Below are positions 1-31,853 of a stretch of DNA of 32,064 nt, piece by piece; the stretch's first letter is position 1; every line of letters begins with the position of its first letter. The stretch lies in NCBI GenBank assembly GCA_018062815.1, contig JAGORM010000006.1, positions 1 through 32,064 on the forward strand, read 5' to 3'. The DNA is from Candidatus Levyibacteriota bacterium (GTDB lineage Bacteria; Patescibacteriota; Microgenomatia; Levybacterales; GWA1-39-11). The notes under the pieces are model-generated. The model was not told where the DNA came from, did not search any database, and saw only the letters and a program-made list of their open reading frames with translations. Both the position numbers and the translations under genes were made by a program.

Positions 1-2757
1 ACCCATAAAAATGGGGAGCTCGAAGAAACAGATAGTCTACCCGCTCTTAGCATAGAGAAGGCTGCAATTCAAGTAATATCAGAGGTTCTAGAACATGGAA
101 CATTAGAGCAACAACAATACGCTATAAGATGCACGCTAGCATTACAGGGTAAACATGAAGAATTAAATAAAATTTTAGAAAAATGTCTAAAGAGTTCAGA
201 ACCCGCTATTAGAAATTACGCAATAGATCAAATATCTATTCTTTCAGAGGGGATGTTCCCTTCAACTGCTCTTTTAGTTTTAGAGAATTACGATGTATTG
301 AAAAATAACCTAGAGAATTCAACAAAAAACGCTTTTTCTAAAAACGTGGCAAAACTATTCATTAGCGGTTCACCATTGGCTTTGGATAATCTTGACACTG
401 TATCTGAAATTTTAGATATTCCAAAAGAGTCTATCTTAAAAATCCAAGAAATCGTTGCGGGATACAAGGAAAAATTTGGGCATCTTCCTTATGTTGATTC
501 ATTAGGCGACTTTCAACAGATACTGCATGTTTCAAAAAATCTTGAGCTATCCGAGCTTGCCCTTGATTTATTTAAAAGAAATGTTAATAGTGATTTGGTT
601 TTTAGAAACATAGATATGCTTATGCAGCAAAAAGATAAAGTGCTTACGGAGATTGATGATATACAGCTCTTTGTTCCTGACTATAAATACATTCCCGTTA
701 TAGGTTATGAAGGAAAAATTCTTATGCCATATGAAGAATTATCGGATACTGACATAAAAGTTTTTGTAAAGACTTTTGAAGAAGTCCACAGAATAAACCC
801 TGTAAGAACAGCTATTGCTGCAAGTAGGCTTATGGATGTACTTTCTGAAACTGACCCACTATTACACGGTCTTCCTAATGCTGAACACTCACAAGAAACC
901 AGAAAACTTTTCCTTGACAGTTTATTGCAAATCTCTGCGTCAGCAAATCTTCCTGAAAATGATCCAAGACAGGCAATAGGCAAATTAGTGGACAATAAAT
1001 ATATGCTACACTACTTAGCACGTCAACCTGAAAAAGCTCAGGAGGTTATAAATCTTCCTGAAACTCAACCTGAATTTTTTACACTCATACAACCAGGGGG
1101 TCCTTTATACTCAAATAGAGAAATTGTATTAAGAGATATCTTCTCAAATGGTCGTGTAGAAAGAAGAGCGAAAGAAATATCATCAGTATTCACAAAGAAA
1201 GTGCCATACTGGAAGCAGCTCTACATGTTTACAAACACACGAATAGGTGACGCGCTTGCTAATGCACAGACTTATTATCCTATTTCTGAAGTTAGTGGTG
1301 TAACATGGACAAGTTTAACTCAACAACATAAGACAGTGAAAGCAGAAAATCCCGACAAAGCTTCACGTCTTGAGGGAATAGTCTCAAACCCTGAGGTTAT
1401 AAGAGAGTTAGTCGAAGGGGAGATTGATACTGTCCCATTTCATGATATAAGCGGCATCTATAAAAAAGTGGTCTTCAGAGACTATCTGAGAAGGTCTATT
1501 GAAACATCGCGTTCCTCCACCGCAAAAGAGTTTGCTGGAGAAAGAAATAGGGAAAAAACTTCGAGCACATTTAAATTCAAGCCAGAAATGTACATTCATG
1601 GTAGCAGACTAGACATTATTGATGACGTGCTCTCAAAAGGAAACCTTCCACAAGAGGCTCTTGGAGAGCGTTCTGGTACTGACTCTTTTCCTTTTCAAGT
1701 CGACTTTTCAAGAGTTACTACAGATTTATTGAACTCACAAGGTAACTCAATTAAGGAAGTAATTGATAAGACTATATCAAAAAACTATGGGGATGGAGTG
1801 TATTATGTGTACGACAGAACAGATACCGATTGGGAACCTGGAAAAGTTGCTTACGGGTACGGAGAAGGACACGCACTGATGCTAGGAGGAGTTCCCTCAA
1901 CAGAGATAGGAGCAATACTTCTTAATAATCCAGAAATTCAATTTGATATTACAAGAAACGCTATTCTTGAAAACGGAATGTACATTCCGGTTTATGCTTT
2001 TGACGGTAAGTTATTATTTTCACCTGAAGAATATGACCAGAAACGACAAGATCTTAATCTAGATGTTCCAGTAGAACTCTGGGACTATTCTCTTAAAACA
2101 GGAGAGCAAAAAGGCAGTAATCCCGGAGCTGAATTCACCATACCCACTAAGACAGGCCCAGAGAAGTACTATGTAAAATACGTTGAAAGAGATGAACTTG
2201 ATCACTTATGGAGTGAGCAGTTAGCAGATAATCTTTATAGAATTTTAGATATTCCTGTTCCTGAAACTAAGATTGTTAAAATTAACAATTCTTTTGGTCA
2301 TGCCTCCAAATTGCTACCTATTGACGATACCAGTGAGCGACCAGGTCTCAAAGAGGGTTTTATAGCAGATTCACTGCTGGCCAATTGGGATGCTGTGTAT
2401 AACCAAGGAAACAACATTGCATCTGGCGGGGAAACCTACAGGATTGATAATGGAGGTGCTTTACAGTTTAGAGCCAGGGGTCAAAGAAAGGAAGATATAT
2501 TCTTTAGTAATGTTACACGTGAAGTTGAATTTGGAACAGATAGACAACGTCTTGGACTTGGAATGAGACAGGAATACCCTGACCTTACAGATGAAGATAT
2601 TAAAACTCAAACTACAATTCTAAAAGAAAAATTAACTGATGATGAAATAGAAAAACAAATAAATTCCGTAAGACTTCCTTCCTCTGAAAGAGAGATGCTC
2701 TCAAAAGTACTCAGAGAAAGAAGGGACTATATTATTGATAGGTTTTCTTCTTTATAG
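1..2757 (+). CDS. Large multidomain protein, 5'-truncated by window: helical repeats + possible ART-like domain + kinase-fold domain
   Basis: The frame is open from base 1, so the gene starts outside the window; the ATG at 253 is internal and 918 residues are visible. The first ~110 residues look like HEAT/ARM-type amphipathic helix pairs, followed by a mostly helical region to about nt 1550. A middle domain (about nt 1585-2060) has MYIHGS (His codon 1597-1599), a GVYYVYDR strand and GGVPSTEIGAILL (Glu codon 1903-1905), an order that recalls His-Tyr-Glu ADP-ribosyltransferases; this is a guess. The C-terminal domain (about nt 2130-2757) has a kinase-like series: VKY Lys (2176-2178), a Glu in the next helix, NWD (Asp 2389-2391) with a later NN, and RIDNGGAL (Asp 2446-2448) in the DFG position, as in HipA/actin-fragmin-kinase-like proteins. 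No signal peptide can be assessed. It converges on dnaB. Substrate unknown; the kinase-fold call is moderate. Confidence 0.7.
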   Translation, partial: THKNGELEETDSLPALSIEKAAIQVISEVLEHGTLEQQQYAIRCTLALQGKHEELNKILEKCLKSSEPAIRNYAIDQISILSEGMFPSTALLVLENYDVLKNNLENSTKNAFSKNVAKLFISGSPLALDNLDTVSEILDIPKESILKIQEIVAGYKEKFGHLPYVDSLGDFQQILHVSKNLELSELALDLFKRNVNSDLVFRNIDMLMQQKDKVLTEIDDIQLFVPDYKYIPVIGYEGKILMPYEELSDTDIKVFVKTFEEVHRINPVRTAIAASRLMDVLSETDPLLHGLPNAEHSQETRKLFLDSLLQISASANLPENDPRQAIGKLVDNKYMLHYLARQPEKAQEVINLPETQPEFFTLIQPGGPLYSNREIVLRDIFSNGRVERRAKEISSVFTKKVPYWKQLYMFTNTRIGDALANAQTYYPISEVSGVTWTSLTQQHKTVKAENPDKASRLEGIVSNPEVIRELVEGEIDTVPFHDISGIYKKVVFRDYLRRSIETSRSSTAKEFAGERNREKTSSTFKFKPEMYIHGSRLDIIDDVLSKGNLPQEALGERSGTDSFPFQVDFSRVTTDLLNSQGNSIKEVIDKTISKNYGDGVYYVYDRTDTDWEPGKVAYGYGEGHALMLGGVPSTEIGAILLNNPEIQFDITRNAILENGMYIPVYAFDGKLLFSPEEYDQKRQDLNLDVPVELWDYSLKTGEQKGSNPGAEFTIPTKTGPEKYYVKYVERDELDHLWSEQLADNLYRILDIPVPETKIVKINNSFGHASKLLPIDDTSERPGLKEGFIADSLLANWDAVYNQGNNIASGGETYRIDNGGALQFRARGQRKEDIFFSNVTREVEFGTDRQRLGLGMRQEYPDLTDEDIKTQTTILKEKLTDDEIEKQINSVRLPSSEREMLSKVLRERRDYIIDRFSSL

Positions 2758-2825: not shown

Positions 2826-4166
2826 TTAATTTTGAAGCGGAGGCGGAGTGTCTTCTCTTTTTCCTTCTATATTATAAAATCTAATCCTGTCTCCCCTAAA
2901 CAATAAATCCTTTTCCCCAACAGGACCGTTTCTGTGTTTGGCAATATTTATGGAAACAATTCTTTGAGAAGAAAATTCCTCGTCTTTTGTGTACAAAAAC
3001 ATAACTACGTCTGCATCCTGTTCTATTGCTCCTGATTCGCGAAGATCCGCAAGCTGTGGCTTTCGCTCTCCTCTGTGCTCTACTGCACGGGACAACTGAG
3101 AAACTGCTATAACCGGAATTTTAAGCTCACGTGCCAAATTTTTTAAATTTTGAGAAACATATGATACTTCTTGCACACGGTTTTCAAACCTCCTACCAGG
3201 ATTAACCAACTGCAAATAATCAACTATTAATAGCTTAAGGCCAGATTCTGCCTGCAATCTTCTCGCTTTTGTGCGTATCTCAGCAATTGAAATTCCCGGT
3301 GTGTCGTCTATAAAGATTGGAGCTTCAGCGAGTTCTCCCATAGCTGTTGAAAGTTTTTCAAAATCATCTTCAGAAAGCCTCCCTGTCTTTAGTCTCCATG
3401 CGTCTATATCCGACTGCGACACAAGAAGCCTATCAACAAGTTCTTCTTTACTCATTTCCAAAGAAAACACACCTACTGGAAGCTTTGAGTGAATAGTAAT
3501 GTGCTGTGCAATATTTACAACAAATGCAGTCTTTCCCTGTCCCGGACGAGCTGCAAGAACAATTAAATTAGAAGGCTGTAATCCTGAAAGTAAAAAATCT
3601 AAATCAACAAATCCTGTCTCTACACCACGAAATCTCCCCCCGTCTTTTTGAAGCTGATCAAGTCTGTCAAAGCTTTCAGCAAGCGAATCTTTAATATGTA
3701 TAAATCCTTGTTTTATACGCTCTTGACTTATTTTAAAAACATCTTGCTCAACTTTATCAAGAACCTCCGGCGTTTCTCCTTCTTCAGAAAATGCCTGCTC
3801 AGTCATATGTCCAGCAAGCGTAATAAGCCTTCTGCGCACATATTTTTCCCTCAATATGCCTGTGTAGTGTTCTATGTTTGAAGCTGTTGGAACTGCATTT
3901 ACAAGCATTGTAAGGTAAGACGCACCCCCAACTTTTTCATACATCTTACGCGCCTTCAATTGACTAGTCAGAGTGACTAAATCAATGGGTTTTCTTGCTT
4001 CATATAGCTCCACCATTGCCAAAAATATCTCTGAGTGATTATCGTCATAGAAGTAGTCTGCTTTAATAAGTTCTGAGCCTAATGTAGCTGCCTCTTTATC
4101 AATGAGAATACAACCTAATACGGCTTGTTCTGCATCTGTGTCATGAGGCGGAATTCTTTGTGGCAT
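2826..4166 (-). CDS. dnaB: Replicative DNA helicase DnaB
   Basis: This is the hexameric 5'-3' helicase that unwinds DNA at the replication fork. Its 446 residues are the normal family length. The N-terminal primase-interaction domain (about 1-150) starts with the typical PHDTDAEQAVLGCIL. The RecA-like domain follows, with Walker A ARPGQGKT at 206-213, the Walker B-like LLIVDYLQL at 312-320 and the C-terminal motif with SQLSR (356-360), QLADLRESGAIEQDAD (371-386) and KHRNGP (410-415). The gene starts 8 nt after the stop of the upstream metallo-beta-lactamase relative, with no Shine-Dalgarno in the gap, so it is probably co-transcribed with that gene. No intein or truncation is seen. Confidence 0.97.
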   Translation of the reverse strand: MPQRIPPHDTDAEQAVLGCILIDKEAATLGSELIKADYFYDDNHSEIFLAMVELYEARKPIDLVTLTSQLKARKMYEKVGGASYLTMLVNAVPTASNIEHYTGILREKYVRRRLITLAGHMTEQAFSEEGETPEVLDKVEQDVFKISQERIKQGFIHIKDSLAESFDRLDQLQKDGGRFRGVETGFVDLDFLLSGLQPSNLIVLAARPGQGKTAFVVNIAQHITIHSKLPVGVFSLEMSKEELVDRLLVSQSDIDAWRLKTGRLSEDDFEKLSTAMGELAEAPIFIDDTPGISIAEIRTKARRLQAESGLKLLIVDYLQLVNPGRRFENRVQEVSYVSQNLKNLARELKIPVIAVSQLSRAVEHRGERKPQLADLRESGAIEQDADVVMFLYTKDEEFSSQRIVSINIAKHRNGPVGEKDLLFRGDRIRFYNIEGKREDTPPPLQN

Positions 4167-4771: not shown

Positions 4772-5194
4772 ATGAAAGAACGAATTGTCATTATTTTTAT
4801 TGCTGTAACATTAGGGCTTCTGGTAACAACAATAGGATTCTTCCTGTATGAAACCTCGAAGCCAAATAAGGAAATAAAACCTGATCTGACAAAAAAAGAA
4901 AAAACTGAACCGCAACCTAGTGGAAAAACAAAATTAACAATTCTTTCTCCTAAAGATGAGGCCGTTACAACAAACAGAACAATTCAAGTAAAAGGAATTA
5001 CTGATTCTCAAAACACCGTTATTATTTCAACAAACTCTGAGGATGTTGTAGTAAGTCCCACAAGCGAAGGAGAATTTACTGCTACAATCACTATAGATGC
5101 AGGTGAGAATAAGCTGATAGTCAGAGCTATTGACACATCAGGGGAAACGGAAGAAGTCATACAAACAATTTCTTTTTCATCAGATTCACTTTAA
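4772..5194 (+). CDS. Membrane-anchored protein with an Ig-like extracellular domain
   Basis: The 140 residues begin with a single hydrophobic segment (about 5-27, IVIIFIAVTLGLLVTTIGFFLY), so the protein is anchored or exported. A lysine-rich linker follows, then one beta-sandwich-like domain (about 52-135) with LTILSPKDEAVTTN, IQVKGITDS and ENKLIVRAIDTSGE, the pattern of bacterial Ig-like/glucodextranase-B-type domains. Such domains usually act as spacers or adhesion modules on the cell surface. The gene probably forms a pair with the next one, whose ATG comes 4 nt after this stop codon. No catalytic motif is seen. Confidence 0.7.
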   Translation: MKERIVIIFIAVTLGLLVTTIGFFLYETSKPNKEIKPDLTKKEKTEPQPSGKTKLTILSPKDEAVTTNRTIQVKGITDSQNTVIISTNSEDVVVSPTSEGEFTATITIDAGENKLIVRAIDTSGETEEVIQTISFSSDSL

Positions 5195-5198
5195 CTAT

Positions 5199-5972
5199 AT
5201 GAAAAAAATATTTATTATTTTGGTAATATTGCTTGGAACAGTTTCTATTATTCCTACTTATTCTTACTCCCAGGGAGCAACCTCATCTGCATCTACTGCC
5301 CCATTGGATGAATCCGAGATGAAAAACGTAAAAAAAATTATTGATCTCGTAGCAAGCAGCTCTGCAGAACAAAAAACAACTTCTAAAGCAGGGGTTATCG
5401 GCGCAGTTCAAGAGGTAAATAATACATCCATAAATATTAAAACAATTAATGGCGCAAGTAGAATCATAGACATTGATGAAATAACAAAGTTTTCAGACCC
5501 AAACTCAAAAACCTTTGGTATATCTGATATCACAGTTGGGGAAACTATAGGCATCATCGGAATATTAAATAAGGTTTCAAATCATATTTTAGCGCGCTCC
5601 GTTGACAGGCTAGATACATTACCCATATTTTTTGATGGTGTTATAACTGCAATCAATAAAGGCAATTTTCAAATTACAGCTGTGGACAAAAATGGAAATG
5701 AGAAAATTCTGGATGTACAAACAACAACAAAAATATTTTCGTATACTAAAACTGAAGGGATGATTAAGGCGGGATTTAGCAAGGCTATTATTGGTGAGCG
5801 GGTTTTTGCCGCCGGTTTTCCTGACGGAAAAATTAAAAACCAAATTGCATCAACTCGAATTGTTCTACTTAAAAATACCGCATTATCTTTGCAAATGAAA
5901 AAGTATCAAGGAACAATAATAAGCCCTAAACAAACCCAGACTCCTAACCCAAGTATAAGCAGCTCCCAATAA
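5199..5972 (+). CDS. Exported protein with repeated small beta-domains
   Basis: The preferred start is the ATG at 5199, because MKKIFIILVILLGTVSIIPTYSYS is a good signal peptide; an in-frame ATG at 5130 would lie inside the preceding gene and precede the signal. The 257-residue product then has two similar units (about residues 60-130 and 135-210), each with a strand pattern around GVIGAVQEVNNTSINIKT or GVITAINKGNFQITAV followed by a VGE/IGERV turn. This resembles DUF5666-type OB-like repeats, but the family assignment is tentative. The tail is Thr/Ser/Gln/Pro-rich. It follows the Ig-like protein by 4 nt and ends 6 nt before the convergent cysS stop. Confidence 0.65.
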   Translation: MKKIFIILVILLGTVSIIPTYSYSQGATSSASTAPLDESEMKNVKKIIDLVASSSAEQKTTSKAGVIGAVQEVNNTSINIKTINGASRIIDIDEITKFSDPNSKTFGISDITVGETIGIIGILNKVSNHILARSVDRLDTLPIFFDGVITAINKGNFQITAVDKNGNEKILDVQTTTKIFSYTKTEGMIKAGFSKAIIGERVFAAGFPDGKIKNQIASTRIVLLKNTALSLQMKKYQGTIISPKQTQTPNPSISSSQ

Positions 5973-30980: not shown

Positions 30981-31853
30981 ATGGGAATAGAAAATCAAAG
31001 AAAATTCTTTATACGACCTCAGGACATAACCCATCTTCAAGCGGTGATTGGGGTAAACCAAGCTGTTTACACTCTATTTAAATCACCCACTCATAAAACA
31101 CCGCATTTGGAAGTTGCAGGAATGATAAAAGAAACTATTCAACCGCTACAACCTCCTATTTATAACATTGAATATGATCTGAGAACTTCCACAAGAGAAT
31201 TGGTTGATCCAAGAAAAAAAAGAAAACTAAAAGGCAAGGAACTCATCCATATTGCCGGGGTAATGATGCAGTTTACCGATTACTCGGATTCACTACAAAT
31301 GTATGCAAAAACCCCACATGAGCATGTAGAAGCATTAACTGCAGGAATAACTAGAAAAGCCGCGGAAACCTTGAAACCAATCACTTTTCCTGAACAGCTG
31401 AATATTGCCCTTAGTCAAACAGAAGGTGACCTCCCAGAGGCATTATGGAGGCTTTTTATCATTTCGAGAATGAATGCCCGCTGGCTTGACGGAAAATCTA
31501 TACCAGATCTACCACAATTTACACAGGCTGAAAAAAGAAAAAAAATGATTGACTGGCAAGATTCTCTTGCTGCATGTAAAACTACTATTCCTCAAGATGT
31601 GGCGGGTGATACATACTATGCATGGACTCATGCTCTCGCCTCAGTTATATATGAGGCACTACCTGCCAGATCATCTTGGAAAACCGGTCTTGCGAAAATT
31701 ATGTTTCAAAATGGAACCAAAATCATGCATGGGGTTGCACATAAAGTTAACCCTCAATCGCTCCCAAACGATCACAACATTGCTTCAAAATACGGAAACG
31801 CCATAGGAAAGGAATGTGTAAACATGCTTAAAGTGAATTTCAGAAATTTATAA
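30981..31853 (+). CDS. Hypothetical protein, 290 aa
   Basis: I do not recognise this protein. It looks soluble and mostly helical, with no signal peptide or membrane segment. Recurring features are a charged middle (LVDPRKKRKLKGKELIHIAG), a helix-rich centre (PEALWRLFIISRMNARWLDG) and a C-terminal part with KIMFQNGTKIMHGVAHKVNP. The start is supported by an extended -10 box 16 nt upstream. It converges with the membrane protein gene cut by the window edge. Confidence 0.6.
   Translation: MGIENQRKFFIRPQDITHLQAVIGVNQAVYTLFKSPTHKTPHLEVAGMIKETIQPLQPPIYNIEYDLRTSTRELVDPRKKRKLKGKELIHIAGVMMQFTDYSDSLQMYAKTPHEHVEALTAGITRKAAETLKPITFPEQLNIALSQTEGDLPEALWRLFIISRMNARWLDGKSIPDLPQFTQAEKRKKMIDWQDSLAACKTTIPQDVAGDTYYAWTHALASVIYEALPARSSWKTGLAKIMFQNGTKIMHGVAHKVNPQSLPNDHNIASKYGNAIGKECVNMLKVNFRNL

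What the first reader, a model, noticed from the sequence alone, without database searches (positions are those of the whole stretch)
1..2757. Giant protein joining helical repeats to a HipA/actin-fragmin-kinase-like domain
More than 918 residues in a genome where most proteins are short is unusual. The C-terminal domain keeps the marks of a kinase fold (VKY Lys, helix Glu, NWD Asp, RIDNGG Asp), so it may be active. Large repeat-plus-kinase proteins often act on partner cells or host-like targets, relevant for episymbiotic lineages, but this is inference.
Basis: partly seen in the sequence, partly recalled or inferred. Interest (0 to 1): 0.6.

Follow-up and report, generated by a model that had tools for sequence, protein, structure and literature searches.

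The report
Giant protein with ADP-ribosyltransferase-fold and kinase domains
A very large bacterial protein ends in a fold like ADP-ribose-transferring enzymes followed by a HipA-like protein kinase, and belongs to an apparently undescribed family of giant solitary proteins, found in tiny-genomed bacteria and gut Bacilli, whose last domain differs from member to member.

Summary
The 918-codon frame is the 3' part of a gene split across two contigs: the window's first 127 bases equal the end of contig C25, which carries 626 codons in frame from an ATG, so the protein is about 1,502 aa. It has no obvious signal peptide or membrane segment. The C-terminal 230 residues are a HipA/CtkA-type kinase: confident AlphaFold model, CtkA at Z 16, and Lys, Glu, catalytic Asp, Asn and metal Asp invariant in 57 of 57 aligned relatives. 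Its sequence relatives sit in giant phage proteins. This domain recurs in giant proteins (47 of 49 named loci at least 1,000 aa) in Patescibacteria and gut Bacilli, followed by different C-terminal domains: nucleotidyltransferase (46 of 56), HD (6), kinase (2) or nothing (2). No immunity-like or conserved neighbour gene was found. I read it as a self-contained modular conflict effector. Whether it acts inside its own cell (sentinel, phage defence) or in a partner cell is open. Partner-cell action is not shown. New variant of a known kind.

The parts
1..2757 (+). 3' part (918 codons + stop) of a gene for a protein of about 1,502 aa; the 5' part (626 codons, ATG) lies at the end of contig C25 (L003:18122-19999)
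1..127 (.). assembly overlap with the end of contig C25 (127 bases identical, a 128-base overlap is not)
1..1530 (+). N-terminal part on this contig, probably helical; weak PUF-repeat match at residues 24-91; residues 333-433 shared with the G280 protein
1531..2061 (+). ART-fold domain ('M domain', P0001 residues about 511-687); candidate active-site His533 (motif I) and Glu635
2065..2754 (+). HipA/CtkA-type protein kinase domain: Gly-rich GSNPG 705-709, Lys726, Glu739, Asn795-Trp-Asp797, Asn805, Asp816-Asn-Gly-Gly
2826..4166 (-). convergent neighbour (replicative-helicase-like, recalled from its sequence): no room for an immunity gene in the 68-base gap

Best explanation
The gene encodes a single-polypeptide, probably cytosolic, modular conflict effector of about 1,502 aa. 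A long N-terminal part (about 1,050 residues over both contigs, probably helical) recognises or scaffolds something. An ART-fold domain follows, and a catalytically complete HipA/CtkA-type Ser/Thr kinase forms the C-terminus. Shown: architecture, folds by prediction, intact kinase motifs, and a C-terminal domain that differs among family members. Inferred: the kinase phosphorylates proteins, most likely translation factors or tRNA synthetases as HipA and HipT do (recalled), and arrests the cell it acts in; activity is held back in cis by the N-terminal part rather than by a separate antitoxin. My preferred site of action is the producer's own cytosol (a one-gene sentinel, for example against phage), with delivery into a partner cell close behind.
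For: Kinase fold and catalytic residues conserved in 57 of 57 rows. ART fold of the preceding domain. The kinase's sequence relatives sit in giant multidomain phage proteins: 19 phage records and 384 of 413 IMG/VR candidate stretches, with ORFs of at least 900 aa in 50 of 60 loci inspected, some with ADPrib_exo_Tox or NUDIX domains or next to portal or minor-head genes. The ART-fold domain is followed by different domains: NTase 46, HD 6, kinase 2, none 2 of 56. Sporadic distribution: 12 of 373 class genomes and 7 of 370 phylum genomes, 0 of 81 others of its own order. Genes are solitary: no neighbour family recurs in more than 3 of 50 loci. No signal or membrane segment in either piece.
Against: No activity, target or trigger is known. 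No PADLOC match, and the neighbours are housekeeping genes, not a defence island. The ART-fold domain of the kinase-type proteins is divergent: the family's His-x-Gly-Ile-Arg-Thr-Gly is lost, and in G280 the Glu position reads Asn. ART Z scores are moderate (8.9 at best). The N-terminal part has no identified recognition domain, and its repeats rest on one weak match.
Confidence: 0.45

Rival explanations
1. The protein is delivered into a partner or host cell, where the ART-fold and kinase domains modify proteins.
For: The closest solved fold is CtkA, described in its PDB title as a proinflammatory kinase. The family's carriers are small-genome Patescibacteria and gut Bacilli, lineages thought to be host-associated (recalled). 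No dedicated immunity gene was found, as expected if the target is not the producer's own. The genome has PilB/PilT-type ATPases and a weak VirB4-like match.
Against: No signal peptide or membrane segment in the pieces; 0 of 50 family members have an N-terminal hydrophobic segment at the cut-off used (crude hydropathy only). No known trafficking domain.
Confidence: 0.3
2. It is a remnant or domesticated copy of a phage polyvalent (head-injected) protein, with no present role for the bacterium.
For: The kinase's many relatives are in phage giant proteins.
Against: Neighbours on both contigs are housekeeping genes. The ART-fold domain was not found in any viral contig. The frame is intact over about 1,500 codons, and base composition is like the neighbours' (GC 0.370 against 0.371; GC3 0.27-0.28 against 0.29-0.32).
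Confidence: 0.1
3. It is an ordinary intracellular regulator or RNA/protein-modification enzyme of the cell, not a conflict protein.
For: Solitary gene among housekeeping genes, no signal peptide; Tpt1 (tRNA 2'-phosphotransferase) is the best ART-fold match.
Against: Patchy distribution (12 of 373 and 7 of 370 genomes) and a catalytic end that differs among relatives do not suit a housekeeping role.
Confidence: 0.15

Closest known systems
CtkA and HipA/HipT-type kinases (Pfam HipA_C PF07804, HipA_2 PF20613)
   Same: Kinase fold (Z 16.1, 12.0, 11.6); Lys, Glu, Asp, Asn and metal Asp present; 15 of 57 alignment members match HipA_C, best E 3.3e-5
   Different: C-terminal part of a giant protein; no HipB/HipS-like partner gene; the window domain itself stays below the Pfam cut-off (15.9 against 27 bits)
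HipA-family kinases of phages ('Gratiaviridae', PMC8008677, passages read)
   Same: HipA-like kinase encoded between portal and capsid genes; some phage relatives of this domain lie next to portal or minor-head genes
   Different: The window gene is in a bacterial housekeeping region, fused to an ART-fold domain of another family and a different N-terminus
Polyvalent proteins of phages and conjugative elements (Iyer 2017, PMC5512222, passages read)
   Same: Giant multidomain proteins mixing ART, kinase, NTase and other domains
   Different: Not in a mobile element here; the kinase described there is a truncated Ser/Thr/Tyr group, apparently not HipA-like ('HipA' occurs 0 times in the text)
ART-fold enzymes Tpt1/KptA and DarT
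   Same: Fold of the middle domain (Z 8.9 and 7.7)
   Different: No Pfam family and no PDB sequence match; Lys at motif I in 41 of 42 rows, His in this protein

Membership tests
HipA/CtkA-like protein kinase fold | Kinase fold of this type | tested here: met
   pLDDT 88, pTM 0.88; Foldseek E 1.7e-6; Z 16.1 over 203 residues, rmsd 3.3
HipA/CtkA-like protein kinase fold | ATP/Mg catalytic residues Lys, Glu, Asp, Asn, Asp | tested here: met
   invariant in 57 of 57 aligned rows
Pfam HipA_2 family (PF20613) | gathering score | tested here: not met
   15.9 bits against a cut-off of 27
HipBA/HipBST toxin-antitoxin system | co-directional antitoxin gene next to the kinase gene | tested here: not met
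   the upstream gene on C25 is divergent (L003:17320-17967, minus), the downstream gene is convergent
Actin-fragmin kinase | sequence or fold match to AFK | tested here: inconclusive
   no Pfam match at E<=10 and not among the listed structures; absence is not proof
ART superfamily | ART fold | tested here: met
   pLDDT 86, pTM 0.85; Tpt1 E 1e-4, Z 8.9; DarT Z 7.7; the highest-ranked rows are ARTs
ART superfamily | active-site triad (His/Arg, Ser/Tyr, Glu) | tested here: inconclusive
   His533 and Glu635 at candidate positions; no residue superposition was possible; Lys at motif I in 41 of 42 rows
Polymorphic toxin | C-terminal catalytic domain that varies on a shared upstream part | tested here: met
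   NTase 46, HD 6, kinase 2, none 2 of 56
Polymorphic toxin | immunity gene directly downstream | tested here: not met
   68-base gap to a convergent gene; no neighbour family in more than 3 of 50 loci
Polymorphic toxin | N-terminal trafficking domain or signal | tested here: inconclusive
   none found by Pfam/NCBIfam or hydropathy
Polyvalent protein | encoded in a phage or conjugative element | tested here: not met
   housekeeping neighbours on both contigs

The most novel reading that the evidence does not exclude
An undescribed family of giant one-gene immune or effector proteins is shared by Patescibacteria and host-associated Bacilli: a variable N-terminal sensor, a fixed ART-fold module that may work as a NAD- or nucleotide-sensing or modifying switch, and an interchangeable output domain that is a cGAS/OAS-like nucleotidyltransferase, an HD hydrolase or a HipA/CtkA-type kinase. 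All three outputs would be alternative ways to shut down or signal from one trigger.
Probability: 0.3. Interest if true: 0.78.

Novelty: new variant of a known kind. Interest (0 to 1): 0.58.

Why it matters
Genomes under 1 Mb rarely keep 1,500-residue proteins without strong reason. A family with a constant ART-fold module and exchangeable kinase, NTase or HD ends would give a concrete, testable handle on how Patescibacteria (and gut Bacilli that carry the same family) fight phages or manipulate partner cells, a field with few identified effectors. It also links a bacterial chromosomal gene to a HipA-like kinase family that is common in giant proteins of phages.

Tried and rejected
Rejected: (1) a plain HipBA toxin-antitoxin pair, for lack of a co-directional partner; (2) a prophage protein, for housekeeping neighbours; (3) the truncated kinase group of Iyer 2017, because its listed features differ.

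Led nowhere: the search for related loci with the single kinase sequence in genome contigs and viral contigs and with alignments A2, A3 and A4 in viral contigs; relatives in the own family (0 of 7 others) and order (0 of 81 others); PADLOC (no match for five of six proteins; a weak Cas3-HD match, E 7.5e-4, for the sixth); Pfam for the ART-fold domain and PDB sequences; N-terminal homology of the window protein to the rest of the family (only the G280 protein). NTase-type ends match cGAS entries only at E 0.6-0.9 and HD-type ends poly(A) polymerase at E 0.02: weak. Actin-fragmin kinase did not appear in any list.

Caveats on counts: my regular expression labelled five NTase members 'other'; I reclassified them by eye, so the NTase figure of 46 is partly by eye (44 of 49 named loci plus L024 and L029). 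The tree needs 4 changes for HD (3-4 in bootstrap), but strongly supported branches force only 1, so repeated swapping is likely, not proven. Of the 14 other class genomes hit, two (G099, G285) proved unrelated on reading and were dropped. Some of the 49 ORFs run off their contigs. The ORF caller for neighbours was a crude longest-ORF one. Rows dropped: of 80 viral kinase loci, 60 were inspected and 56 aligned; of 49 ART-fold loci, 41 were aligned with the window.

Literature searches on which 'undescribed' rests: (listings seen; passages read only of PMC5512222, PMC7824862, PMC9503650 and PMC8008677). The library holds open-licence papers only.

Full report
What is there. The window is the whole of contig C9 of an 885 kb, 25-contig genome. 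Frame 1 is open from base 1 to 2757, 918 codons. The first 127 bases are identical to the last 127 of contig C25 and match nothing else in the genome. C25 ends in a 626-codon frame that begins with ATG and runs in phase into the overlap, so the protein should be about 1,502 aa. I kept the two pieces apart throughout. Neither piece has a membrane-like segment (best 19-residue mean hydropathy 1.18 and 1.07). The gene stands alone between a divergent gene on C25 and a convergent one 68 bases downstream. Its base composition is that of its neighbours.

The C-terminal domain. Window 2065-2754 (230 residues) was aligned with 56 relatives from IMG/VR. Lys726, Glu739, Asp797, Asn805 and Asp816 (numbering of the 918-residue piece) are invariant in 57 of 57 rows. 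The AlphaFold model has pLDDT 88 and pTM 0.88. Foldseek's only matches under E 0.001 are seven chains of CtkA. The second look gives CtkA Z 16.1 (203 residues, rmsd 3.3), CotH 14.5, HipT 12.0, HipA 11.6, then RIO and PI3-kinases near 9. Fifteen of 57 members match Pfam HipA_C, best E 3.3e-5; the window domain itself only reaches 15.9 bits with HipA_2, below the cut-off. It is therefore a divergent HipA/CtkA-type kinase with a complete set of catalytic residues.

Where else this kinase occurs. tblastn finds it in 19 phage and 3 plasmid records, and a profile-guided scan in 384 of 413 candidate viral stretches. In 50 of 60 inspected loci it lies in a frame of at least 900 codons. In the annotated cases it is part of proteins of about 1,220 to 3,290 residues, in some next to a portal gene or a minor-head gene, in some with ADPrib_exo_Tox or NUDIX domains in the same chain. 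HipA-family kinases between portal and capsid genes have been reported before (PMC8008677, passages), and giant multidomain 'polyvalent' phage proteins are known (PMC5512222, passages). The kinase is thus a new member of a known kind.

Window 1531-2061 encodes a domain of about 180 residues that Pfam does not know. Its model (pLDDT 86, pTM 0.85, 42 rows) matches ART-fold enzymes: yeast Tpt1 E 1e-4 and Z 8.9, DarT Z 7.7, archaeal Tpt1, CteC and others. Z near 8 is moderate, but the highest-ranked rows are all of this superfamily. The motif-I position is His533 here and Lys in 41 of 42 aligned rows; Glu635 is Glu in 37 of 42. The window and G280 members have lost the family's H-x-G-I-R-T-G stretch, and in G280 the Glu position reads Asn. 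Activity of this domain in the window protein is therefore uncertain.

A family with an exchangeable end. A protein search found matches in 14 of 372 other class genomes, most of them in the middle domain alone and inside very long frames; two of the 14 (G099, G285) proved unrelated on reading. A profile of the domain finds 12 of 373 class genomes including its own and 7 of 370 phylum genomes; none of the 81 other genomes of the order had a match to the C-terminal 408 residues. A scan of named genomes gave 49 loci in Patescibacteria and gut Bacilli. Their proteins have 696-3,017 residues, median 1,538, and 47 of 49 have at least 1,000. After the ART-fold domain comes a nucleotidyltransferase-like domain in 44 of 49 and an HD domain in 5 of 49 (read by eye). 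Adding seven further members (window, L020, L024, L027, L029, L030, L031) gives NTase 46, HD 6, kinase 2, none 2 of 56. Four phylum hits outside the class are also NTase-type, some of them probably the same genomes as named loci; they are not in the 56. Only the window protein and the G280 protein carry the kinase; of 5 class genomes with a kinase hit, the other three have it outside such proteins. In a tree of the ART-fold domain the two kinase-type proteins are sisters (100/91). HD-type members need 4 changes on the tree, though strongly supported branches force only 1. The 26 Bacilli-type rows form one clade (100/100) among Patescibacteria rows. One member (L024, 4,079 aa) also has a PRTase-CE match, E 3.7e-6.

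Context. In 50 loci no neighbour family recurs in more than three, so no common immunity gene, antitoxin or operon partner was seen. PADLOC finds nothing of weight. The neighbours of the window gene are housekeeping genes. The genome has type IV pilus-type ATPases and one weak VirB4-like match.

How it most likely works. Shown: a long N-terminal part, an ART fold (predicted), a kinase fold with intact catalytic residues (predicted), and a last domain that differs among relatives. Inferred: such designs are typical of conflict effectors, and the HipA type of kinase is best known for arresting translation by phosphorylating tRNA synthetases (recalled). With no separate antidote, activity is probably held back within the same chain until the N-terminal part meets its trigger. 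I favour action in the producer's own cytosol (a one-gene sentinel), with delivery into a partner cell as a close rival. The evidence does not separate them.

Novelty. The kinase family and ART folds are known. The constant ART-fold module with exchangeable kinase, NTase or HD ends in solitary giant genes of Patescibacteria and gut Bacilli did not appear in my searches, which cover open-licence papers only.

Noticed in passing
L024 (G306:C3), frame of 4,079 aa: Carries a PRTase-CE match (E 3.7e-6) and a methyltransferase-like match upstream of the ART-fold and NTase domains.
   Followed up: no
L051 (G086:C14:4809-5159): A separate 608-codon frame with a kinase-like match (E 4.1e-9) in a genome that also has an ART-fold plus NTase protein.
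   Followed up: partly
L106 (Streptomyces plasmid NZ_CP108366.1), 2-4678: The same kinase type sits at the very C-terminus of an unannotated frame of more than 1,550 codons.
   Followed up: partly
L072-L101: Gut Bacilli, Erysipelotrichaceae and Tenericutes carry ART-fold plus NTase giant proteins forming one clade (26 rows, 100/100), suggesting transfer between phyla.
   Followed up: partly
window 5130-5969 and 30981-31850, + strand: Two frames of 280 and 290 codons without a Pfam match.
   Followed up: no
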